Of a DNA stretch of 63,422 nucleotides, positions 36,447-49,322 are shown one piece after another. A model generated the notes under the pieces. It ran no database searches and was not told the origin of the DNA. It was given only the letters and a program-made list of their open reading frames with translations. Both the position numbers and the translations under genes were made by a program. Source of the stretch: Gemmatimonadota bacterium (lineage in GTDB: Bacteria; GCA-2686955); assembly GCA_002686955.1 (NCBI GenBank), contig NYZA01000258.1, positions 1-63,422 on the forward strand. The letters run 5' to 3'. Numbering within the stretch: position 1 is the first letter of the stretch; every line of letters starts with the position of its first letter.

Positions 36447-39383
36447 TCAAGGGTTGCGGCGAATCAGTGGAGCGGACCAGGGCGCGGCGATCGACACCAT
36501 CCAGCGTGCGCCAAACTCGTCCTGCTCGCCGAGCAGCTCCGGGTGGTTCAACCAGACCGGCAGATCGAGGCGAATCGGCAGGCGTCCCAAGAGGCTTCCG
36601 CGAATCCCGATCCCCGCGTCGTCGAGCGACCCGAGACCGGCCGTGTCGACCCCTACGCCGCCCGGGCTCGCCGAATCGACGAAGAGAAAGAGCCGCGGCT
36701 TCGAAAGCGCCTTGCCCACAACCCCCCCGATCAGCGGAAGCGGGCCCTCGACCTCGGCGCTGATCGCCGCCAGTCGCTGTGCCGCGAAATCGCCCGCGCT
36801 GCCGAAATAGCCCCGCGCATTCCCCCCACCGGGCATCCAGACATGCAGATCGTCGGGCACTCCGCCGGGCGACGCCAGCCAGGGCGCCTCGTGCCGCGCC
36901 CTCACACCTGCCCCCCCCACCCGGAATCGCTCGTGCGCCGGAGTCGGTTCCGAGCTCAGCCCTGCCAGGAAACGCAGCCGCACCCGCAGATCGCTCCTCG
37001 GCACCTCGCCCGTCACGCGGGCGCCCAGAGCCAGCCGATCGAATCCGTGGTCTCCGCCGAAGCTCTCGATCCCCCGCCTGAAGCCGATCGACGCGCTCAG
37101 ATCGAAAGGGTACGGCCGCGCCGAGACATCGTGGAAGAGCCCGAGGACGTGCGTATCGCCCCGCTCCCATCCCGCGCCGGCGAGACGCTCACCGACCGTC
37201 TCCCGAGAGATCCCGAACCCGAAATGGTGGTGGGGCGGATAGATCTTCTCCCTCGACCCCCAGCGTTCGAAGCGCCACTCCCACCGCTCCAACCCCTCGA
37301 TATTCTCGACGGTGAAGAGATGCGTTCCATCCCGCCCCCAGCGTCTGAGACGCCGCGAGGGGAGCGACAAACGCAGCCGCAGATCGAAGCGCTCCCGCTC
37401 CTGAGACCACCAGGCGCCCATCAGGCTCTGGTCGAACCATCCCCCGTATCCAAGCCTGAGATTGCCACCCAAACGGTATCCGTCGACGTCGTTGTGCCAG
37501 CCCCCCGGGCGAAAGCGCAGAGCATAGGCATCCTCGTCGGGCTCGGCGTGTGCCGGCCAATCGATCCCGAAGGAGGTCGCCCGCGGCCACCGATCGTTCC
37601 GGCGATCGACATCGGCGAACTCTCCCCGCGGATCGAGGATGTAAGCATCGGGCCGTTCCCGGGTCACGACTGTCAGCTCGCTGACTCGATCCTCACCCGC
37701 GCCATCGATCACCACTTCTGTGTTCTCGTCCTCCCCCACACGCCCGCGCCCTCCTCGAAGATGGAGTTCGAAGGGGACGGCGATATCCCCGATCCTCTCG
37801 ACGGTCACGGTGCTTCGCCACGATCCGTCCGGCTCCTCTTCGACCGCCACGTCGTCGATCGCCATGTCGATGCCGTCGGTTTTCCGGACCCAAGCATCGA
37901 AGACCGCTTCCAAAGGCTGGCCCGACGCATCCTCCATCGCCTCCCGAAAGCGGTCCTCGGTGACGTGATCGAGCGCCCAACGTTCGTAGTAGAGACGCAT
38001 TCCCCGATCGAAGGTCTCCCGTCCGAGCAGATTCTCGAGGTGATCGAGGAAGAGGGAAGCGCGCCCGTACACCATGTCGCGATAGGCCTCGACGAAGCGG
38101 TGGGAGTGGGTGTCGACCGGCTCCATCCGTCCGCGCCGCAGTCGCGCCGCGTGCCGCCGCCGCCCCCGCTCCCAGAGCGCTTCCGGCCCCAGAAGCGAAT
38201 CGTAACGGCTCAGTTTCTCCTTCTTGCCGTTGGGCCCATAGCGCTCGGTCAGATAGCGGGTGGTTTGCCAGGTGGTGAAGCCCTCGTCGAGCCAGGCGTG
38301 GTCCGTCTCGTCGTTCGCCAGGATGCCGTAGAAGTAGATATGGCCGACCTCGTGCAGCACCAATCCTTCGCTCGCGCGCCCGTCCATGACGAGCATCGGG
38401 TACTCCATGCCGCCGCTAAGCAATCCGTGCACGAGGCTGAGCTGCGGATAGGGGTAGGGTCCAACCAGACGATCGAGCCATTCCAACGCACGCGCTCCGT
38501 AGACATGCACCGAGTCGCGCCACGCGTCGCCGTCGGAGGAACGGATGAAGCTGTGTATCTCCGTCCCATTGAACGTCGTGTCTATCAGCGCGAAATCGGG
38601 CGACGCGCACCAGGCGAAATCGTGGACATCGTCGGCTTCGAATGTCACGCTACGGCGCTCTTCGGGATCCCGTTCCGGAGGGCTTTCGTCGTCGAAGCGG
38701 GCGCGTGCGTCGCCCCAGCCCGGATTGCCCTCGGTGGGCACGCCGGTCGCCGCGACTACGTGGTCGGCCGGCACATCGATCGTGACACGGAAGGATCCGA
38801 ACTCGCCGTAGAACTCCCCCTTGCGGTAGGGATCGAGATCCCATCCATCCGCATCGTATACGGCTACCTTCGGATACCACTGGGCCATGTCGAACTGGCG
38901 GCCCCGCCAGCCTGATCGGGTGCTGTGCTTGCGGATCTGTCCACCCCAGACGAGGTCGATGCGAGTGGATGAGCCTGGAAGAAGGGGAGGATCGAGAGGG
39001 ATGCGGAGCAGGGTGTAATCGACGGCGAATTCGCTCGGGCTGCCGGCGACGGAGAGGGAGTCGATATCGATCCAGCCGCGCTCCTCGTCACCGAGGGCAT
39101 CGACGAGGCGGCCGTTGTGGTGACGCCAATGGTCGCGGCGCATCGGTGATGCCTCGTCACGGAAGGCGTTCGGGTAGAGGTGGAAGACGAGCTGCGTCAA
39201 GGTGTCGGGGGAGGCGTTGTGGTAGTCGACGCTCTCCCTGGCCTCGAGCGATTTCGCGCCGGCATCGAGGCGCACATCGATCGTGTAGCTCGGCACCTGG
39301 CGCCAATCGTCGGCCGGCTCGGCGGCGGCCTGGGCTCCGAGGAAGACGCAGATGAAAAGGGTGATGAAGCCGGGAATCCGCAT
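36447..39383 (-). CDS. M1-type metallopeptidase fused to a predicted outer-membrane beta-barrel
   Basis: A 978-residue protein with a signal peptide (to about residue 21). Residues 30-470 form an M1 aminopeptidase-like part: the substrate/exopeptidase loop GGMEY (324-328) and zinc site HEVGH (344-348) with the third ligand E367 in WLDEGFTTW. This is HExxH-x18-E. Residues about 600-978 have no peptidase features and read as beta-strands alternating with turns (GNLRLGYGGWFDQSLMGAWW, RVGGAGVRARHE, RWMVSIAAPWSAPL), ending in a strand: a barrel like that of Omp85/BamA-type surface proteins. The fusion would hold the peptidase at the outer membrane. It is the first gene of the hisS operon, transcribed from the 228-base gap to the restriction gene. 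Confidence 0.8.
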   Translation of the reverse strand: MRIPGFITLFICVFLGAQAAAEPADDWRQVPSYTIDVRLDAGAKSLEARESVDYHNASPDTLTQLVFHLYPNAFRDEASPMRRDHWRHHNGRLVDALGDEERGWIDIDSLSVAGSPSEFAVDYTLLRIPLDPPLLPGSSTRIDLVWGGQIRKHSTRSGWRGRQFDMAQWYPKVAVYDADGWDLDPYRKGEFYGEFGSFRVTIDVPADHVVAATGVPTEGNPGWGDARARFDDESPPERDPEERRSVTFEADDVHDFAWCASPDFALIDTTFNGTEIHSFIRSSDGDAWRDSVHVYGARALEWLDRLVGPYPYPQLSLVHGLLSGGMEYPMLVMDGRASEGLVLHEVGHIYFYGILANDETDHAWLDEGFTTWQTTRYLTERYGPNGKKEKLSRYDSLLGPEALWERGRRRHAARLRRGRMEPVDTHSHRFVEAYRDMVYGRASLFLDHLENLLGRETFDRGMRLYYERWALDHVTEDRFREAMEDASGQPLEAVFDAWVRKTDGIDMAIDDVAVEEEPDGSWRSTVTVERIGDIAVPFELHLRGGRGRVGEDENTEVVIDGAGEDRVSELTVVTRERPDAYILDPRGEFADVDRRNDRWPRATSFGIDWPAHAEPDEDAYALRFRPGGWHNDVDGYRLGGNLRLGYGGWFDQSLMGAWWSQERERFDLRLRLSLPSRRLRRWGRDGTHLFTVENIEGLERWEWRFERWGSREKIYPPHHHFGFGISRETVGERLAGAGWERGDTHVLGLFHDVSARPYPFDLSASIGFRRGIESFGGDHGFDRLALGARVTGEVPRSDLRVRLRFLAGLSSEPTPAHERFRVGGAGVRARHEAPWLASPGGVPDDLHVWMPGGGNARGYFGSAGDFAAQRLAAISAEVEGPLPLIGGVVGKALSKPRLFLFVDSASPGGVGVDTAGLGSLDDAGIGIRGSLLGRLPIRLDLPVWLNHPELLGEQDEFGARWMVSIAAPWSAPLIRRNP

Positions 39384-39611
39384 GGGGTGGGACTCGGGGG
39401 ATGAGGATGAATCCGGACGCGGGGGTGGGAACGGGAGAGGATACGCTGGACGGGGGCGTTTTGGGTCGGCGAAGGGATGGCGCTCCGGGTTTGCGCCCCT
39501 TAGGGCCCGCGAGGAGAGGAACTTGCCGAGATTGGCCCGGGAACCGAAGAGCGCGCTCCGAGAGAGCTTCGACTATGATCTGCCCCAGTCCACACCGACC
39601 CGGGGGCAAGA

Positions 39612-42600
39612 ATGGCCGAGCAGTTCTTCGAACGACCGATCCTCAACTCCCCCTACGCCTATCCGCTCCGCCACTGGGAGCTGGATGGGGATGGTCAGCC
39701 GACCAACCGCGTCATCGAGCGGCGACGGCGCGCCGAGTTCATCACGCCGATCCCCAAGCCGAAGAAGCGACGCCGGGACAGCGCGCAATCCGAGATCGTA
39801 TTCGACGAAGGCAAGGGGCTCTCGACGGCAGCGCAGCAGTACGACCCGACGCCGATCATCAACGAGCTTCGCCGGACCGTGGACCACTGGCGGGAGGTAC
39901 CCGACGAAAGCGGTTGGCGCGTCACCCCCGAGACCGCGCGGCTGCTCAAGCACTGGCGCCACCACCGATTCAGCGGCATCCGCCCCTTCTTCTGCCAGGT
40001 CGAGGCGATCGAAACCGTCATCTGGTTGACCGAAGTCGCACCCAAGAGCGGCAAAGGGGGACGGCGCTTTCTGCATCACCTCGAAGCCGCGAGCGATCAG
40101 GCGAATCCGGGGCTCGGCCGACTGGCGCTGAAGCTGGCCACGGGAGCGGGCAAGACGACGGTGATGGCGATGCTCATCGCCTGGCAGACGATCAACGCGC
40201 TGCGCCGCCCGGGCAGCAAGCGATTCACGCGCGGTTTTCTCGTCGTCACCCCCGGCATCACCATTCGCGACCGCTTGCGAGTGCTGCAGCCGAACGACCC
40301 CGACAGCTATTTCCGCGACCGCGAGCTGGTCCCTGCCGAGATGCTGGGCGATCTCGAACGGGCACGGATCATCATCACCAACTACCACGCATTCAAACCG
40401 CGCGAGACTTTGAACCTCTCCAAAGGGGGCCGATCGCTTCTGCAAGGGAGGGGGCCGGATCTGCGGACGGTCGAGACCGAGGGGCAGCTCTTGCAGCGCG
40501 TCCTACCGGAGCTGATGGGGATGAAGCAGGTGCTGGTGCTCAACGACGAGGGCCACCATTGCTACCGCGAGAAGCCGGGGGACGACGCGGAAAGAGCGCT
40601 GAAGGGCGACGACAGAAAAGAAGCGGAAAAGAACCGCGAAGCAGCGCGCCTGTGGATCTCGGGTCTCGAGATGGTCGAAAGGCGGATCGGCCTGCAGCGG
40701 GTCATCGACTTGTCGGCCACACCTTTTTTCCTGCGCGGTTCCGGCTACGCCGAGGGAACGCTCTTCCCATGGACCATGAGCGACTTCTCGCTGATGGATG
40801 CGATCGAATGCGGAATCGTCAAGCTGCCGCGAGTGCCGGTCGCCGACAACATTCCCGGCGCGGAGATGCCGAAGTTCCGCAATCTCTGGGCGCACATCGG
40901 CGTCAAGATGCCCAAAAAGGGGCGAGGAAAGGCCGGTGGGCTCGATCCGCTGAGTATTCCGGTGGAGCTCCAGACCGCGCTGGAGGCGCTCTACGGGCAC
41001 TACGAGAAGACATTCGAGCTGTGGCGAGAAGCGGGGATCGAGATGCCGCCCTGCTTCATCGTGGTCTGCAACAACACGTCGACATCGAAGCTGGTCTACG
41101 ACTACATCTCGGGCTTCCATCGCGAAGGGGAGGGTGGCGCACGCACGTTGGAGCAGGGACGCCTTGCCCTGTTTCGGAACTTCGACGAGGACGGCTCGCC
41201 ATTCCCGCGCCCCCGCACGCTGCTGATCGACAGCGAGCAGCTCGAATCGGGCGACGCCCTGGACCCCTCTTTCCGCAAGATGGCGGGGGACGAGATCGAG
41301 CGGTTCAGGCGCGAGATCCTCGAGCGCACCAACGATCACCGTCTGGCGGCGAATCTGTCGGACCAGGATCTTTTGCGCGAGGTGATGAACACGGTCGGCA
41401 AGCGGGAACGGCTCGGCGAATCGGTTCGTTGCGTCGTTTCGGTGTCGATGCTCACCGAGGGATGGGATGCGAATACCGTGACCCACGTGCTCGGCGTGCG
41501 AGCGTTTGGCACCCAGCTCCTCTGCGAACAGGTGGTGGGCCGGGCGTTGCGCCGCCAGTCGTACGATCTGAACGAGGAGGGGCTCTTCAACGTCGAGTAT
41601 GCCGATGTGCTCGGCATCCCCTTCGACTTCACCGCCAAGCCGGTCGTCACGAAGCCCCAGACGCCCCCCGAGGCGATCGTCGTCTGCGCCGTCCGCCCCG
41701 ACCGGGACGCTTGCGAGATCCGCTTCCCGCGCGTGGCCGGGTATCGAGTGGAGCTGCCGAATCAACGACTGAGCGCTGACTTCGACGACGACTCCAAGCT
41801 GGAGCTCACTCCCAAGCTGGTGGGCCCCTCGAACACACAGAACCAGGGCATCATCGGTGAATCGGTCAACTTGAATCTGGTGCACACCCGATCCCTGCGC
41901 CGCTCCGCGCTCGTCTACTACCTCACCAAGCAGCTCCTCTACAGCGATTGGCGCGATCCCGGCGAGGAGCCGAAACTGCACCTCTTCGGCCAGCTCAAGC
42001 GGGTCACTCGCCAGTGGCTCGACGAGTGTCTGGTGTGCAAAGGGGACACCTATCCGGCCCAGCTCATGTATCAAGACCTGGCCGCGATGGCGTGTGCGCG
42101 CATCACCCGAGGAATCATCACGAAGCTGGCGGGGAAAAGCCCGATCAAGGCGGTGCTCGATCCCTACAACCCGACCGGCTCCACCAACCATGTCCGCTTC
42201 AGCACCTCGCGGAAGAAGACATACTTCAAGACCGACCCCCGCCGCTGCCACGTCAATTGGGCGGTGTGCGATTCCGGCTGGGAGGGGGAGCTCTGTCGGG
42301 TCGCGGAGGATCATCCTCGGGTGCGAAGCTACGTGAAGAACCAGGGACTCGGGTTCGAAGTTCCGTACCGCTACGGTGCGACCGCGCGCATCTATCGGCC
42401 CGACTTCATCCTCGTCATCGACGACGGACGTGGTCCGGACGACCCGCTGCAAATGGTGGTCGAGGTCAAGGGGTACCGAGGCGAAGACGCGAAGGAGAAG
42501 AAGGCGACGATGTTGACCTACTGGGTGCCCGGCGTGAACGAGCTCGGCAGCTACGGTCGCTGGGGATTCGTCGAGCTCACCGACGTGTTTCAGATGACCG

Positions 42601-42677
42601 ACGAACTGAACTCCGCGATTAACGCCTGTGTCGAGGCGGGGAAGAGCGATCGCAGAGCGGTCGGACAAACGGCGTAA
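39612..42677 (+). CDS. Type III-like restriction helicase-nuclease (BPTD_3080 family)
   Basis: A 1021-residue SF2 helicase fused to a nuclease. Walker A is ATGAGKT (176-182); the DEAD-box variant is LNDEGHH; motif III is LSATPFF; motif V/VI are VSMLTEGWD and QVVGRALRR. A C-terminal PD-(D/E)xK-type site reads YRPDFILVID, then VVEVKGY. This is the restriction subunit of the Res type of the BPTD_3080 family; it translocates on DNA and cuts unmodified sites together with its methyltransferase. The partner methyltransferase starts 14 bases on. The protein begins MAEQFFERPILNSPYAYP, a known start of this family. It is divergent from the M1 peptidase. Confidence 0.9.
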   Translation: MAEQFFERPILNSPYAYPLRHWELDGDGQPTNRVIERRRRAEFITPIPKPKKRRRDSAQSEIVFDEGKGLSTAAQQYDPTPIINELRRTVDHWREVPDESGWRVTPETARLLKHWRHHRFSGIRPFFCQVEAIETVIWLTEVAPKSGKGGRRFLHHLEAASDQANPGLGRLALKLATGAGKTTVMAMLIAWQTINALRRPGSKRFTRGFLVVTPGITIRDRLRVLQPNDPDSYFRDRELVPAEMLGDLERARIIITNYHAFKPRETLNLSKGGRSLLQGRGPDLRTVETEGQLLQRVLPELMGMKQVLVLNDEGHHCYREKPGDDAERALKGDDRKEAEKNREAARLWISGLEMVERRIGLQRVIDLSATPFFLRGSGYAEGTLFPWTMSDFSLMDAIECGIVKLPRVPVADNIPGAEMPKFRNLWAHIGVKMPKKGRGKAGGLDPLSIPVELQTALEALYGHYEKTFELWREAGIEMPPCFIVVCNNTSTSKLVYDYISGFHREGEGGARTLEQGRLALFRNFDEDGSPFPRPRTLLIDSEQLESGDALDPSFRKMAGDEIERFRREILERTNDHRLAANLSDQDLLREVMNTVGKRERLGESVRCVVSVSMLTEGWDANTVTHVLGVRAFGTQLLCEQVVGRALRRQSYDLNEEGLFNVEYADVLGIPFDFTAKPVVTKPQTPPEAIVVCAVRPDRDACEIRFPRVAGYRVELPNQRLSADFDDDSKLELTPKLVGPSNTQNQGIIGESVNLNLVHTRSLRRSALVYYLTKQLLYSDWRDPGEEPKLHLFGQLKRVTRQWLDECLVCKGDTYPAQLMYQDLAAMACARITRGIITKLAGKSPIKAVLDPYNPTGSTNHVRFSTSRKKTYFKTDPRRCHVNWAVCDSGWEGELCRVAEDHPRVRSYVKNQGLGFEVPYRYGATARIYRPDFILVIDDGRGPDDPLQMVVEVKGYRGEDAKEKKATMLTYWVPGVNELGSYGRWGFVELTDVFQMTDELNSAINACVEAGKSDRRAVGQTA

Positions 42678-42690
42678 GGAAGATCCACCG

Positions 42691-45525
42691 ATGACCCGCA
42701 AAGCGACCAAGAAACCGAAGCAGATCGAAACTCTCAAGCATCACGAGGCGAATCGCAGGAACATCCCCACGGCGGAGTATCGATCGGTCCTCGCCGAGGA
42801 GGAGCGCAGCCCGGTGCGGGTGGCCTACGAGCATCGCAATCGAGACCTCGATCCCCAGCTCGTCTGGCGCGGGAAAGACGTGCGGGACTGGTCCGACCTG
42901 GTCGTGCAGGCACCTCCTCTGTACATCCAGGAAAAGGTGCATCCCAAGGTCTTGATCGACGACCTGATGCGCCGGACCGAGCGGGCCGAGTCGGAGCGGG
43001 CGGCCCGGGAAGAAGGTTCCCAAACCGATCTCTTCGCCGACTTCAACGGTCTGCCGAACGAAGCCGCGCGCACCGAGTTCTACCGGCACGACGCCAACTG
43101 GACCAACCGCATGATCCTGGGCGACAGCTTGCAGGTGATGGCCTCGCTGGCCGAGCGCGAGGGGCTGCGCGGAAAGGTGCAGTGTATCTACATCGATCCA
43201 CCCTACGGCATCAAGTTCAACTCGAACTTCCAATGGTCGACGACAAGCCGCGACGTGAAAGACGGCAAAACCGATCACATCACGCGTGAGCCGGAGCAGG
43301 TGAAGGCATTTCGGGACACTTGGCGGGATGGGATTCACTCCTATCTGACCTACTTGCGGGATCGCTTGACTGTGGCGCGGGATCTCTTGACCGATTCGGG
43401 ATCGGTATTCGTGCAGATCGGGGATGAGAATGTGCATCGGGTGCGGGCGGTGTTGGATGAGGTTTTTGGGGAATCGACCTTTGTCGCGCAGATTGGATTC
43501 ACCAAGACGACAGGCTCAACGACCGACACGATAGCGGCGGTCTTCGACACTCTTTTGTGGTACGCAAAGGACGAATCACAACTCAAGGTGCGCAAACTCT
43601 ACTGGCGACAAAGTCCCGGAGAGGAGGGTGCCCGAGAATACAAGCGTGTCGAAACCAAGGACGGGCGCCTGGTTCCGATCAGTCAGTTTCGAGTTGAAGG
43701 CAGGACAGATCTGCCGGAAGGAGCGACAGTCCTAGCTACGGACAGCATTGTGTCGAAGGGCGGTGACGATCCGGACCTCGAGTTTCCATCAAGCAAAGGG
43801 CCTATCAGGCTCTCGTGCAAACCGAATCGCCACTGGAAACCGGGGCCGGATGGTATCAAGCAGCTTTGGAACATCGGTCGGCTTCTGCGGCAGTCCGGCC
43901 TGCGTATCTACAAGCGATACCTGGACGATTTTCCATATCGACACATGACCAACATCTGGACTGACACTCGAGGTGAGGATGATCCGTCGTATGTAGTGCA
44001 GACGGACGAGAAGCCGTTGGAGCGCTGCCTCCTAATGACCACCGACCCCGGCGACCTCGTCCTCGACCCCACCTGCGGTTCCGGCACCACCGCCACCGTC
44101 GCCGAGCAGTGGGGCCGCCGCTGGATCACGATCGACACTTCACGCGTTGCGCTTGCCCTGGCCCGTGCTCGCATCATGGGTGCCCGCTACCCCTACTATC
44201 TGCTCGCCGATAGCAAGGAGGGTCAGCTCAAGGAAGCAGCAGTCACGCGAACCGAGCGGTCGTCGGCCCCAACGCACGGCCGCGTCCGCCAGGGCTTCGT
44301 CTACGAGCGCGTCCCCCATATCACGCTCAAATCGATCGCCAACAACGCCGAGATCGATGTCATCTGGGAACGCTACCAGGAGCTGCTCGAGCCTCTGCGT
44401 GAAGCGCTCAATCGCGCGGGCGGCGAGAGCTGGCAGGAGTGGGAGATCCCGCGCGACGCCGGGGAAGGCTGGTCGGCCGAGACAAAGAAGATCCACACCG
44501 AATGGTGGCAGCACCGGATCGCGCGTCAGCAAGAAATCGACGCATCCATCGCCGCACGGGCCGACTTCGAGTACCTGTACGACAAGCCCTACGACGACAA
44601 GAAACGCGTGCGGGTCGCCGGCCCCTTCACGGTCGAGAGCCTCTCGCCCCATCGGTTGCTCGCCGTAGACGAGCACGATGAGCTGATCGACTCCGTCGCC
44701 GAATCCCCGCCGCCCTACGGAGAGACACAAGACTTCGCCACCATGATCCTGGAGAACCTGCGCATGGCGGGGGTGCAGCAGGCGCACAAGGAGGATCGCA
44801 TCGTCTTCGGTTCGCTCACCCCCTGGCCCGGCCACATGATCTGCGCCGAGGGGCGCTATCTCGAAGGGGAGGAAGGAGACGGTAGCGCCCGCGAGAAGCG
44901 CGCAGCGATCTTCATCGGCCCCGAGTTCGGCACCGTCTCCCGCCCCGACCTCGTCGAGGCCGCGCGCGAGGCGGCCGATGCCGGCTTCGACGCGCTGATC
45001 GCTTGCGCCTTCAGCTACGAAGCCCACACCGCCGAGCTAGACAAGCTGGGGCGGATCCCCATCCTCAAAGCGCGCATGAACGCCGACCTGCACATGGCGG
45101 GCGATCTGAAAACCACCAAGCACGCCAATCTTTTCGTCGTCTTCGGCGAGCCGGATATCGAGATCGGTCCCGCGACGGGCGAGGACGCGGGCGACGACCA
45201 GATCCAGGTCGAGATCAAAGGCGTGGACGTCTTCCACCCCAGCAGCGGTGAGATCCGCAGCGACGGCCCCGAGGGCATCGCCTGCTGGTTCATCGACACC
45301 GACTACAATGAAGAGAGCTTCTTCGTCCGCCACGCCTATTTCTTGGGCGCGGGCGATCCCTACAAATCCCTCAAGACAACTCTCAAAGCAGAAATCGATC
45401 GCGACGCTTGGGATACGCTGCACAGTGCCGTATCGCGTCCCTTCGACCAGCCGAAAACCGGCAGGATCGCGGTCAAGGTGATCAACCACCTGGGCGATGA
45501 GGTCATGAAGGTCTTTCGGACATGA
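42691..45525 (+). CDS. DNA methyltransferase of the type III-like system
   Basis: A 944-residue site-specific DNA methyltransferase. Motif IV DPPYG is at 169-173 and motif I DPTCGSGTT near 459, i.e. the beta-class order (IV before I) with a recognition domain between (about 260-450). DPPY points to N6-adenine, though N4-cytosine is possible. A further 480 residues follow (from about 465, with ITLKSIANNAEIDVIW and a C-terminal nucleotide-fold-like part), longer than classical Mod subunits. The start is the ATG at 42691; the upstream frame overlaps the restriction gene. The recognition stretch (43500-44035) is visibly less GC-rich (near 55 %) than its surroundings. Confidence 0.9.
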   Translation: MTRKATKKPKQIETLKHHEANRRNIPTAEYRSVLAEEERSPVRVAYEHRNRDLDPQLVWRGKDVRDWSDLVVQAPPLYIQEKVHPKVLIDDLMRRTERAESERAAREEGSQTDLFADFNGLPNEAARTEFYRHDANWTNRMILGDSLQVMASLAEREGLRGKVQCIYIDPPYGIKFNSNFQWSTTSRDVKDGKTDHITREPEQVKAFRDTWRDGIHSYLTYLRDRLTVARDLLTDSGSVFVQIGDENVHRVRAVLDEVFGESTFVAQIGFTKTTGSTTDTIAAVFDTLLWYAKDESQLKVRKLYWRQSPGEEGAREYKRVETKDGRLVPISQFRVEGRTDLPEGATVLATDSIVSKGGDDPDLEFPSSKGPIRLSCKPNRHWKPGPDGIKQLWNIGRLLRQSGLRIYKRYLDDFPYRHMTNIWTDTRGEDDPSYVVQTDEKPLERCLLMTTDPGDLVLDPTCGSGTTATVAEQWGRRWITIDTSRVALALARARIMGARYPYYLLADSKEGQLKEAAVTRTERSSAPTHGRVRQGFVYERVPHITLKSIANNAEIDVIWERYQELLEPLREALNRAGGESWQEWEIPRDAGEGWSAETKKIHTEWWQHRIARQQEIDASIAARADFEYLYDKPYDDKKRVRVAGPFTVESLSPHRLLAVDEHDELIDSVAESPPPYGETQDFATMILENLRMAGVQQAHKEDRIVFGSLTPWPGHMICAEGRYLEGEEGDGSAREKRAAIFIGPEFGTVSRPDLVEAAREAADAGFDALIACAFSYEAHTAELDKLGRIPILKARMNADLHMAGDLKTTKHANLFVVFGEPDIEIGPATGEDAGDDQIQVEIKGVDVFHPSSGEIRSDGPEGIACWFIDTDYNEESFFVRHAYFLGAGDPYKSLKTTLKAEIDRDAWDTLHSAVSRPFDQPKTGRIAVKVINHLGDEVMKVFRT

Positions 45526-45586
45526 AATCTCGCGCGTACGCGGGTGATCGCGGTGTCGAGCTCGCGAAGCTGAAAGGGCGGCGTCG

Positions 45587-46594
45587 ATGACGCAGAAAAT
45601 CGCAACCCTGACGCGGGTCCGAATCGAGAACTATCGTTGCCTGCGAGAGGTCGATGTGCCGCTTGCGCCACTGACCGTGCTCATTGGGCCGAACGACTCC
45701 GGGAAGAGCACGTTCTTGGGGGCGCTCGAGAGGCTGGGGCAGGCCGCCCGATCGAAGTGGGACGGAACATCGTGGCTGGGCGACCCGAGCGCACAACCGA
45801 GCATACTCGGGGAGCTCTCCAGCGGTGAGAGCCGAGCGATCGGCGGCGATCAGCACGTTCATCCGCCCCCGGGCAGTGTCTTGCTGCCGCGCGCCCATTC
45901 GGGCCCGAAAGTCGGAGGAGGAACTTACTTCGACCTCGCCCCGTCCAGGCTGCCCCAGGAATCGGGAGGGCATGGCGACAAGCGGGGCGTGCCGAAGCTG
46001 GACGAGGTCGGCGGCGGTGCCGCAGCGTTGCTCGACTACCTGCTGCGAAGAGACCGGGAGCGATTCGACGCCTACGTTGCGGCGGCTCGAGCCCAGATCC
46101 CGGGACTGAAAGACCTCCGAATCGCGACTCCGGAACCCGAAAAGCGCCGCATCGACCTGGTGACCGAAAAGGGCTTCGAGGTTCCCCCCGCGCACCAGTC
46201 CGCCGGCGTCCGCCTGATGCTCTTCATGCTGGCTCTGGCCTTCCACCCCAGCCCACCCGGGCTGGTGCTGATCGACGAGCCGGAGAACGGGATCCACCCA
46301 AGGCGGCTCAAAGAGGTGATCTCGTTGCTCCGCCAGTTGAGCAGAGGCGAGCACGGCGATCACAACGCGCAAGTCGTACTCTCGACCCATTCCCCTTATC
46401 TACTCGACCACATCGATCCCGAGCAGGACCAGGTGCTCGTTTTCCGGCGCAATGAAGAAGACGGGAGCCGGACAGCGGAGCCCGTTGATCCGGAGCGGGT
46501 GCGGGGCTTCCTGGATGAGTTCATGCTGGGCGAAGTGTGGTTCAACCAGGAAGAAAGCGCCCTGGTGGCCAGGAGGACGGAGAGCAAGGGGTGA
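45587..46594 (+). CDS. AAA/ABC-type ATPase of a defence-like pair
   Basis: A 335-residue ATPase of the SMC/RecF-like (AAA_21) kind. It starts with the typical LTRVRIENYRCLREVDVPL; Walker A is GPNDSGKS (34-41), the signature-like AHQSAGVRLML at about 202-212, Walker B LVLIDEPENGIHP (226-238), and the H-loop STHSPYLLDH (H268). It has no nuclease of its own. Its last four bases overlap the GTG start of the next gene, so the two proteins are made together. ATPase-plus-TOPRIM pairs of this design (OLD, Gabija and PARIS-like) work in phage defence, and this pair stands 61 bases after the restriction-modification genes. Defence is inference. Confidence 0.8.
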   Translation: MTQKIATLTRVRIENYRCLREVDVPLAPLTVLIGPNDSGKSTFLGALERLGQAARSKWDGTSWLGDPSAQPSILGELSSGESRAIGGDQHVHPPPGSVLLPRAHSGPKVGGGTYFDLAPSRLPQESGGHGDKRGVPKLDEVGGGAAALLDYLLRRDRERFDAYVAAARAQIPGLKDLRIATPEPEKRRIDLVTEKGFEVPPAHQSAGVRLMLFMLALAFHPSPPGLVLIDEPENGIHPRRLKEVISLLRQLSRGEHGDHNAQVVLSTHSPYLLDHIDPEQDQVLVFRRNEEDGSRTAEPVDPERVRGFLDEFMLGEVWFNQEESALVARRTESKG

Positions 46595-47202
46595 TTCGGC
46601 TCTTGATCGTTGGGGATGGCGCGAGGGATTGTGCGATGTTGCCGCGCCTGGTCGAAACGATTCTGGCGGCGAGCGGTGAAGAGGTGGTTGTGGACTCGGA
46701 GTCGCGATCCTGAGCCCGCTTGCACCGCGGCGGTCGCGGCTACGCCCGGAAGCTCCTCTTCGCGATCCTGCAAGCGATCGACGCTGACCTCGAAGGCGTT
46801 GTGGCGGTGGTGGATGCCGATCGCGCAAAGCCGGCGAAGCGACTCGCCGAGCTGAGAAAGGGTCGCGATCGGCATCGGGAGAGGAGCACCCCCTTTCCGA
46901 CCGCCGTCGGCGTGGCCGATCCGCATGGCGAGGCTTGGCTGCTGGACGACCGGCAGGCGATTCGATCCGTGCTCGGGCTCCCTGAAAGCGCGAGGATCCC
47001 AACCGTCGTGCAGGCCAGGCGTGACGCGAAGGGCGCGCTCCAGGCTGTGATCGATGAGAGCGAGCGCGCAGGAGACCGGGTCATGGAGCTGATCGGGAAC
47101 GTCGCGGCGCAGGTCGATCCGCGCCGATGCGTGCACGCTGATCGCACCGGATTCGGCCCCTTCGCGAAAGATGTGCGCGACGAGCTCGGGAAACTGCCCT
47201 GA
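46591..47202 (+). pseudogene. TOPRIM-like partner of the ATPase, interrupted by in-frame TGA
   Basis: A 203-codon frame starting at the GTG 46591 that overlaps the ATPase stop (GTGA). It begins VIRLLIVGDGARDCAMLP, which resembles the first strand and loop of TOPRIM/DUF4276-type proteins, then reaches TGA at 46711-46713 (codon 41). The same frame continues without a shift through RGGRGYARKLLFAILQAID and GVVAVVDADRAKP (D75, D77: DxD motif) to the TGA at 47202. Both halves are protein-like, so a single-base nonsense change (TGG or CGA to TGA) is simplest. A short stem (CCGC 46725-46728 with GCGG 46736-46739) follows; selenocysteine recoding is conceivable but unlikely. Function: probable nucleic-acid-cutting partner. 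Confidence 0.6.
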
Positions 47203-47454
47203 TCCGCTCCGATTTTGCCCCCGTGAGTGGGCAAGAAGTCCGGCGGGAGTGAGGGCCGGAAAGGCCCGGGATCTCAAGGGGGCCGCGAAATCGGCGCAAC
47301 CAAGCGCAAGGGCGACCGAGAGGCGAACGGAAGGGGGCCGACCGCGGGGATGGACGGCTCTCAACCGAGCTCGCTCAGACCCCGCGCGCTCCCCAAATCC
47401 CTCCCTCTCTCAACTAGAATCGTTCGATTCGGGCTGCCAAACGAAACCACACCC

Positions 47455-47622
47455 TTGCTCTTCTACTTCGCCAAAACCCTGCAAGCGGCCGGCATGATCG
47501 CCGTCGGCGCGTCGGTCTATCTCGGCTTCGCCCGCGGGCAGGCTCCCGATGTGCCGGCCTTTGTGATCGGGCTCGTGACTTTCTATGGCGGGCGCCTCGC
47601 CGAGCGTTACGCCGGGCGTTGA
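47455..47622 (+). CDS. Small membrane protein
   Basis: A 55-residue peptide starting at the TTG 47455 (MLFYFAKTLQAAGMIAVGAS). Hydrophobic residues 2-24 form one helix and VPAFVIGLVTFYGG a second shorter one, with a basic end (RLAERYAGR). Tiny two-helix peptides of this form, starting LFYxxKTLxAAG, are widespread but uncharacterised. A longer in-frame upstream sequence (to 47227) is low-complexity. It converges on the phosphatase gene, overlapping it by 16 bases. Confidence 0.55.
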   Translation: MLFYFAKTLQAAGMIAVGASVYLGFARGQAPDVPAFVIGLVTFYGGRLAERYAGR

Positions 47623-49322
47623 GAACGAATCCGCCGCGCACCCAGTAAGGTGATGTCGTCGTGGCGGTGCTCGCCGGCACGGTGGCGGCGCAGGCGAGAG
47701 AGCAAGGTCCGCAAGATCTGGTGCAGATGGCGACCCTTTTGTTTCGCCTCCTCGCCCAGGAGGGCATCGAGCCGGTCCAGCCCGAACTCTTCGCCCTCGG
47801 GCGATCGGGTCTCGGTCACGCCGTCGGTGTAGAGGAGGAGCAGTGATCCGGGCGGAAGCTCCACGCGCCCGGTTTCGTAGAGCGCCTCCGGCATGACTCC
47901 GAGCACCAAGCCCCCTTCATCGAGCTGCTCATGGCTGCCGTCGTGGCGCACGACGATCGGTGGATCGTGACCCGCGTTGACGTATTCGAACGCGCCATTC
48001 GCTGGATCGAGAAGGCCGACGAAAAGCGATGAAAATCGCGCGTGGGCCATTCGCGCGCCGCAGAGCAGACGGTTGGCCCCGGCGACCACGCGCGCCAGAT
48101 CGCGCTCACGCTGCAGCCCGTGCCGAATCGCGGCGTGGAGGGTGGCCGCGAGCATCGCGGCCGGCGCCCCTTTCCCCATCACATCGCCCACGACGAGCGC
48201 GAGATCACGGTCACGCTCGACCACGTCGTAGAGATCTCCACTCATCTCGAGCGAAGGGAAATTCGCCCCCAGAATCTCCCAGCCTTCGGGCTGTGGAATG
48301 TTGCGGGGGAGCAGCCCGCGCTGAATGCTGCGGGCAGTCTTGAGCTCTCGCTGGAGCGCCTGCGCCTGCACCTCGGTGGTGTGGAGGCGGGCGTTCTCGA
48401 TCGCGACGGCGGCCTGCGCCGCGACCGAAGCCAGCATCTCGCGATGCTCTCTCCGGTAGGCCGCGGGCGAATCGCTCTCGAGCACGAGCACGCCGATGTG
48501 CACACCGGTGACCGTCAGCGGGATCGCGACCGCCGAGCGGGTCGAAGCGCGGGCCTCCACATAGCGGCTCTCGTTCGCCACCTCGGAGACTGCCACGGCA
48601 TCTCCGCTTGCCAAGGCCAGTCCGGCGATCCCCTGAGTGGTCTTCAGCTTGACCGATCCGAGATCGGAAAAACCGCGTGCCGTGGCGGGCTGAAACTCCT
48701 TGGCCCCCTCCCGCAGAAGGAAGATCGCCGCCGCATCGTAGGGGACGACATCCGCGAGCGAATCGAGCAGCCGTTCGATGACCTCATCGATCCGCAGCGA
48801 ACCCGTGATATGCCGCTGCAGGTCGAGAAGCACCCGCCGCTCGTGGCTGAGGCGGCGCGCCCTCGCCAGACGCCACGAGTTCACCAGACCCCGATTCAGA
48901 GCGCCCCCGAGCCGTTCGAGACGGCGGCGCTCCCCCCAGGGCACCCCGCGGAGCAGCACGAATCCGTCGATCTCCGCATCGCCCGGGAGCAGAAGCACCA
49001 ACTCGACCGCGGAGTCGAGCAGTCCCGGTTCGCACTCCGACAAAAAGTGCTCGAGCTCCTCCTCGCCGCGCGCCAGGCTTCTTCCCTCCGGAAGTGTTTT
49101 GGAGGGCGCGAGAGATACCGCGGGCGGCAGCTCGAAGCTCTGGAGCAGTACCGGAACCCGCGCTTCGCCACTTCCGACACGCAGGAAGATCGCGGCTCCG
49201 GCGATTCCGTGAACGTGGCGGAGCCCATCCAAAGCGACCTGACCGAGGCGCGGCAGATCGATTGCCGACGCCACCTCGACTAGCAGCTCCAGCCGGTCTC
49301 TTTCGTTCTCGCCGATTGCCAT
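47607..49322 (-). CDS. GAF-domain SpoIIE-type (PP2C) serine phosphatase
   Basis: A 571-residue signalling protein. Residues 1-150 are a weak GAF-like domain; 165-315 are a clear GAF domain (LLDSLADVVPYDAAAIFLL, GIAGLALASGDAVAVSEV, AVAIPLTVTGVHIGVLVLES). Residues about 335-565 are a SpoIIE/PP2C phosphatase with metal-binding aspartates in MSGDLYDVV and VVGDVMGKGAPAAML and the late DGVTETRSPEGEEFG and HRHDDITLLGAR. The short linker helix with LQRELKTARSIQRGLLP is the usual regulatory crossover switch. It likely dephosphorylates an anti-sigma-factor antagonist in response to a small ligand; its targets are not in the window. Confidence 0.92.
   Translation of the reverse strand: MAIGENERDRLELLVEVASAIDLPRLGQVALDGLRHVHGIAGAAIFLRVGSGEARVPVLLQSFELPPAVSLAPSKTLPEGRSLARGEEELEHFLSECEPGLLDSAVELVLLLPGDAEIDGFVLLRGVPWGERRRLERLGGALNRGLVNSWRLARARRLSHERRVLLDLQRHITGSLRIDEVIERLLDSLADVVPYDAAAIFLLREGAKEFQPATARGFSDLGSVKLKTTQGIAGLALASGDAVAVSEVANESRYVEARASTRSAVAIPLTVTGVHIGVLVLESDSPAAYRREHREMLASVAAQAAVAIENARLHTTEVQAQALQRELKTARSIQRGLLPRNIPQPEGWEILGANFPSLEMSGDLYDVVERDRDLALVVGDVMGKGAPAAMLAATLHAAIRHGLQRERDLARVVAGANRLLCGARMAHARFSSLFVGLLDPANGAFEYVNAGHDPPIVVRHDGSHEQLDEGGLVLGVMPEALYETGRVELPPGSLLLLYTDGVTETRSPEGEEFGLDRLDALLGEEAKQKGRHLHQILRTLLSRLRRHRAGEHRHDDITLLGARRIRSQRPA

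What the first reader, a model, noticed from the sequence alone, without database searches (positions are those of the whole stretch)
45587..47202. ATPase/TOPRIM-like defence pair with an in-frame TGA in the second gene
An AAA/ABC ATPase (Walker A GPNDSGKS, Walker B LVLIDEP) overlaps by four bases (GTGA) a 203-codon gene that looks TOPRIM-like (LLIVGDGARD..., DxD at D75/D77), directly after a restriction-modification pair. TGA at 46711-46713 interrupts it, yet the frame reads on unchanged. Explanations: a point nonsense mutation, read-through, or UGA recoding (a 4-bp stem with a GGTC-containing loop follows at 46725-46739). The TOPRIM does not carry the usual VEG glutamate, so it may be a new subtype. 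Sequence facts are seen; the defence role is inferred from ATPase+TOPRIM systems (OLD, Gabija, PARIS).
Basis: partly seen in the sequence, partly recalled or inferred. Interest (0 to 1): 0.62.

Follow-up and report, generated by a model that had tools for sequence, protein, structure and literature searches.

The report
Defence gene pair, broken by mutation
An ATPase gene and a nuclease-like partner gene of a known kind of candidate phage-defence pair lie next to a restriction-modification system, and the partner gene is cut short by one stop codon at a position where its intact relatives have tryptophan, so this is most likely an ordinary inactivating mutation (or a sequence error) and not a special way of reading the stop codon.

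Summary
An intact ATPase gene (45587-46594) overlaps by GTGA a 203-codon frame (46591-47202) broken only by TGA at codon 41 (46711-46713). Read through, the second protein is a DUF4276/HEC-01B-type TOPRIM: AlphaFold pLDDT 93.6, and its best solved match is the nuclease region of OLD (6nk8, Z 9.0, 167 aligned). Orthologous pairs were found, with ATPases of the same short form and unbroken second genes. The three closest (43, 41 and 38% identical) all have Trp (TGG) where the window has TGA; a fourth has Phe and none has Cys. The best explanation is therefore a TGG-to-TGA nonsense change, real or a consensus error, in an otherwise well-preserved gene; the truncated product lacks most of the active site. 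The genome does carry selenocysteine machinery (tRNA-Sec, SelB), so recoding had to be tested. It is disfavoured: no Cys orthologue, no unusually stable hairpin, and the loop motif occurs by chance at about 9% of codons. The missing 'VEG' glutamate is a conservative Asp shared by the closest orthologues, not a new subtype. The pair sits after a type III-like R-M system, and the defence role is inferred. Ordinary finding, low interest.

The parts
45587..46594 (+). Gene A: OLD/HEC-01A-type ABC ATPase, 335 aa, intact
   Evidence: AAA_21 3.2e-30; HEC-01A PDLC04182 1.9e-36; 49-53% identical to orthologues of similar length in L056 and L057; fold matches retron and Septu PtuA Z 14-15 (model confidence moderate, pLDDT 65)
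46591..47202 (+). Gene B: DUF4276/HEC-01B-type TOPRIM gene, 203 codons, interrupted at codon 41
   Evidence: HEC-01B PDLC04196 3.9e-9 read through; orthologues 43/41/38%; model pLDDT 93.6; OLD nuclease region top in VIA-align, Z 9.0
46591..46594 (+). GTGA overlap: start of gene B and stop of gene A
   Evidence: sequence; the orthologous genes lie as close (L056 A ends 5001, B starts 5004; L057 A ends 1662, B starts 1662)
46711..46713 (+). In-frame TGA, codon 41; Trp (TGG) in the three closest orthologues
   Evidence: same column when the residue is masked as X, C or R
46714..47199 (+). Rest of gene B after the TGA, 162 codons, open; holds D75, D77, E114 and K147
   Evidence: single copy in the genome; HEC-01B 2.8e-8 on its own
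46725..46739 (+). CCGC/GCGG hairpin with GGCGGTC loop, judged a chance feature
39612..42677 (+). Type III-like restriction endonuclease (BPTD_3080 family), full length
   Evidence: NF046055 1334 bits, cut-off 800
42628..45525 (+). Type III-like DNA methyltransferase, full length
   Evidence: PADLOC MTase_III PDLC03632 1381 bits; N6_N4_Mtase 1e-31

Best explanation
It is a two-gene ATPase + TOPRIM module of the HEC-01 (ATPase + DUF4276) kind next to a type III-like R-M system, whose TOPRIM gene carries a TGG-to-TGA change at codon 41 (Trp to stop): a recent nonsense mutation in this strain or a consensus error in the metagenome-assembled genome. The intact module would most likely work like PARIS or other OLD-type systems: the ABC ATPase senses infection and holds or releases a two-metal TOPRIM nuclease that cuts nucleic acid (inferred, target unknown). 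As sequenced, translation stops after 40 residues. The fragment keeps D9 and D13 but lacks D75, D77 and E114, so no active site can form and the module is inactive, apart from whatever trace of full-length protein low-level UGA misreading would give. Shown: intact ATPase, TOPRIM family and fold, Trp in orthologues. Inferred: sensing, nuclease activity, loss of function.
For: The TGA column is Trp/TGG in 3 of 3 and Phe in L058, also when the window residue is masked; only 2 of 203 columns are Trp in all three, so a stop placed at random would fall on one about 1% of the time. TGG to TGA is a single transition. The rest of B is undamaged: single frame, conserved EAWLLDD and TGF, coding bias. Standard code: 20 of 29 predicted genes in the window end in TGA, gene A among them. 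TOPRIM: model pLDDT 93.6 with OLD nuclease region 6nk8 ranked first, Z 9.0, 167 of 198 residues. Active-site acids D9/D13/D75/D77/E114 are spaced like BpOLD E400/E404/D455/D457/E508 (PMC6755086).
Against: No reads were available, so a real mutation cannot be told from an assembly error. The absence of further damage in B could also mean that the stop is tolerated or read through. The genome has tRNA-Sec and SelB. Orthologues are only 38-43% identical. The fold match is only modestly above unrelated rows (Z 9.0 against 8.4), though it covers more of the protein than nearly all of them.
Confidence: 0.88

Rival explanations
1. UGA at codon 41 is decoded as selenocysteine, directed by the stem-loop just downstream.
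For: The genome encodes tRNA-Sec (76.9 bits, anticodon TCA) and SelB (above cut-off). A hairpin with a G-containing loop starts about 15 nt after the UGA, the expected place for a bacterial SECIS.
Against: Orthologues have Trp or Phe, never Cys; bacterial selenoproteins are recognised by Sec/Cys pairs (PMC1088965). The hairpin is no more stable than shuffles and such hairpins are common here: 50% of codons for a GG loop, 9% for a GGTC loop. The protein is a metal-dependent nuclease type, not a redox enzyme.
Confidence: 0.02
2. UGA is read through as Trp at a useful level (near-cognate tRNA-Trp or a suppressor tRNA), giving a small regulated dose of nuclease.
For: The residue that misreading of UGA usually inserts, Trp (own knowledge), is exactly the one in orthologues, and the frame beyond is well preserved.
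Against: No orthologue keeps a TGA. TGA is the commonest stop in the window. No stimulating element beyond chance was found. A recent mutation explains the same facts.
Confidence: 0.06
3. Two separate proteins: a 40-aa leader and a second protein starting at TTG 46720.
For: A TTG lies 7 bases after the TGA and the remaining 160 codons are open.
Against: No ribosome-binding site at usable spacing was seen by eye; the split falls between the first and second pairs of metal ligands; all orthologues are one gene.
Confidence: 0.03

Closest known systems
HEC-01 (PADLOC Hma-embedded candidate 01: ATPase HEC-01A + DUF4276 HEC-01B)
   Same: Adjacent ATPase and DUF4276-like genes in the same order; both hit the models; the arrangement is also annotated on Streptomyces and Meiothermus plasmids as AAA ATPase + DUF4276.
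   Different: Gene B is a distant member (3.9e-9) with VGDG in place of the usual VEG, and is interrupted by a stop codon.
PARIS (AriA-AriB)
   Same: Separate OLD-type ATPase and TOPRIM genes; gene A hits AriA models; AriB is a two-metal TOPRIM nuclease (PMC12409363).
   Different: Gene B hits no AriB model in the PADLOC search; the tRNA target of AriB was not tested here.
OLD family nucleases (Class 2, BpOLD/XccOLD)
   Same: Gene B model matches the nuclease region (Z 9.0) and the acidic active-site pattern corresponds, with Asp for E400 and for E404 (PMC6755086).
   Different: OLD is one fused protein; here ATPase and TOPRIM are two genes.
Gabija (GajA/GajB)
   Same: GajA models match the ATPase part of gene A.
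   Different: No fused TOPRIM and no GajB helicase gene beside it.

Membership tests
HEC-01 (ATPase + DUF4276 pair) | ATPase matching HEC-01A | tested here: met
   PDLC04182 E 1.9e-36
HEC-01 (ATPase + DUF4276 pair) | Adjacent partner matching HEC-01B/DUF4276 | tested here: met
   PDLC04196 E 3.9e-9 read through and 2.8e-8 for the part after the stop; Pfam DUF4276 below threshold for this protein but matched by 15 of 17 aligned relatives
HEC-01 (ATPase + DUF4276 pair) | Both genes intact | tested here: not met
   TGA at codon 41 of gene B; orthologues intact
HEC-01 (ATPase + DUF4276 pair) | Phage defence activity | not testable with these tools
   needs a plaque assay
TOPRIM two-metal nuclease (OLD type) | TOPRIM fold | tested here: met
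   model pLDDT 93.6; 6nk8, 6njv and 6njw at Z 8.1-9.0 over 160-167 residues. Modest Z, but greater coverage than nearly all unrelated rows
TOPRIM two-metal nuclease (OLD type) | Acidic residue at the Glu position, DxD, and further metal ligands | tested here: met
   D9, D13, D75, D77 and E114 conserved in the three closest orthologues; L058 has Glu at position 9 and the others unchanged. First position is Asp instead of Glu. Correspondence to BpOLD rests on order and spacing, not on a superposition
PARIS | AriB-type partner | tested here: inconclusive
   no AriB model among the PADLOC matches of gene B up to E = 1; a weak profile miss does not exclude kinship
Gabija | GajA with fused TOPRIM plus GajB helicase | tested here: not met
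   gene A ends after the ATPase; the neighbour is gene B, then an unrelated gene on the other strand
Bacterial selenoprotein | Sec machinery in the genome | tested here: met
   tRNA-Sec and SelB
Bacterial selenoprotein | Cys (or Sec) at the UGA position in homologues | tested here: not met
   Trp, Trp, Trp, Phe
Bacterial selenoprotein | SECIS hairpin beyond chance after the UGA | tested here: not met
   z +0.9 to +1.0 and a common motif

The most novel reading that the evidence does not exclude
The UGA is a maintained, leaky stop that lets a small and perhaps regulated fraction of ribosomes insert Trp and make a low dose of a potentially self-harmful TOPRIM nuclease.
Probability: 0.05. Interest if true: 0.6.

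Novelty: new member of a known kind. Interest (0 to 1): 0.15.

Why it matters
It adds a divergent branch (short ATPase plus VGDG-type TOPRIM, so far seen in planctomycete-related genomes and here) to the ATPase + DUF4276 candidate defence pairs. It also shows how to separate a nonsense mutation from UGA recoding in an organism that really has selenocysteine machinery: orthologues decide. Otherwise it is an ordinary case of an inactivated accessory defence gene.

Tried and rejected
(1) Close relatives by single-protein scans: none in viral contigs, genome contigs, phages or plasmids; orthologues were found only with a motif-directed alignment and a profile search. (2) Suspected decay in gene A, because of weak codon periodicity at 45707-45946 and short length: dropped, since orthologues L056, L057 and L088 have the same short form and no other frame scores better. 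(3) A second HEC-01B with an internal TGA (L016): an artefact, the match ran past the gene's own stop. (4) Selenocysteine: see rivals. A check for formate dehydrogenase as a native Sec control found no in-frame TGA. (5) Foldseek alone gave no significant solved match for B, and sequence profiles found no solved relative of B. (6) Empty site in the only relative of the same family: the flanking genes lie on different contigs there, so no clean empty site could be shown. (7) A literature search for DUF4276 found nothing in the held library.

Full report
Observation. Every sequence statement in the finding was confirmed. Gene A (45587-46594) encodes a 335-aa ABC-type ATPase. Gene B (46591-47202) begins in the GTGA overlap and is a 203-codon frame interrupted once, by TGA at codon 41 (46711-46713). 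Beyond the TGA 162 codons stay open, keep the genome's coding bias in the same frame and are conserved in orthologues.

Family. Gene A matches AAA_21 (3.2e-30) and PADLOC HEC-01A (1.9e-36). Gene B read through matches HEC-01B (3.9e-9), against 2.8e-8 for the part after the stop alone. Pfam DUF4276 is below threshold for this protein but is matched by 15 of 17 aligned relatives. The same two-gene layout is annotated as AAA ATPase + DUF4276 on Streptomyces and Meiothermus plasmids.

Orthologues. Ordinary scans found no relative. A motif-directed scan of 84,980 genomes gave L056 (Planctomycetota, E 5e-45) and L057 (Phycisphaerae, 4e-30) among 23 loci, and a profile search of 195 further genomes gave L088 (7.6e-39). 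Each has an ATPase of the same short type directly upstream and an unbroken gene B of about 191-210 residues. At the TGA column L056, L057 and L088 have Trp, coded TGG, and L058 has Phe. Masking the window residue as X, C or R does not move the column. Only two columns of 203 are Trp in all three orthologues. A TGG-to-TGA transition is therefore the simplest history.

Fold and active site. With a 17-sequence alignment the read-through protein is modelled with pLDDT 93.6. Foldseek gave no significant match, but realignment of its top 1000 chains put the nuclease region of Burkholderia OLD first (6nk8, Z 9.0, 167 of 198 residues), with Xanthomonas OLD at Z 8.3 and 8.1 over 160-164 residues; other rows cover 97-131 residues, apart from 2p62 (172 residues, Z 7.3). 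In BpOLD the metal ligands are E400, E404, D455, D457, T506 and E508 (PMC6755086). By order and spacing, gene B offers D9, D13, D75, D77 and E114; D13, D75, D77 and E114 are identical in the four relatives, and D9 is Asp in three of them and Glu in L058. The 'missing VEG glutamate' is thus a conservative Asp shared by the closest orthologues and also seen in a more distant member (L076). It does not make a new subtype.

Is the UGA recoded? This had to be taken seriously, because the genome carries a tRNA-Sec (76.9 bits, ARAGORN anticodon TCA) and SelB. Three results speak against it. Orthologues have Trp or Phe, not Cys. The downstream RNA folds no better than shuffles (z +0.9 to +1.0). And hairpins meeting the same criteria follow 50% (GG loop) or 9% (GGTC loop) of all in-frame codons in this GC-rich window. 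TGA is the commonest stop in the window (20 of 29 genes), so it is not a general Trp codon. Low-level misreading of UGA as Trp would give some full-length protein (established knowledge of near-cognate decoding); whether it matters is open.

Mechanism. Intact relatives most likely work as OLD/PARIS-like modules in which the ATPase senses infection and controls a two-metal TOPRIM nuclease; in PARIS the TOPRIM cuts tRNA (PMC12409363) and in Class 2 OLD it cuts DNA (PMC6755086). A survey describes such OLD-ABC + TOPRIM modules as widespread companions of BREX-type and restriction-like systems (PMC12839542), which fits the position here, 61 bases after a full-length BPTD_3080-family restriction enzyme and type III methyltransferase pair. 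As sequenced, the stop leaves a 40-residue fragment without the DxD and E114 positions, so the module is probably inactive. Real mutation and consensus error cannot be separated without reads.

Verdict. A correct observation with a sober explanation: a new, divergent member of a known kind of candidate defence pair, with a nonsense change in its TOPRIM gene.

Noticed in passing
G000 contigs C140:4533-4625 and C119:7703-9577 (loci L037, L044, L051), outside the window: The genome encodes tRNA-Sec and SelB, so it probably decodes UGA as selenocysteine somewhere; its true selenoproteins were not identified (the formate dehydrogenase alpha-like matches show no in-frame TGA).
   Followed up: partly
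39612-45525: Full-length type III-like R-M pair (BPTD_3080-family restriction enzyme with a large N6/N4 methyltransferase), the two ORFs overlapping by 50 bases.
   Followed up: partly
36447-49322 and G001 C261/C880: In the only other genome of the same family the orthologues of the genes flanking the R-M plus ATPase block lie on different contigs with other neighbours, which fits an accessory insertion or rearrangement.
   Followed up: partly
L056 4015-5633, L057 589-2294, L088 520-2079: A VGDG-type TOPRIM branch with short (roughly 316-357 aa) ATPases, found in planctomycete-related genomes; in L056 it stands between argininosuccinate synthase-like and glutamine amidotransferase-like genes (function read from sequence only) with no R-M genes next to it.
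   Followed up: partly
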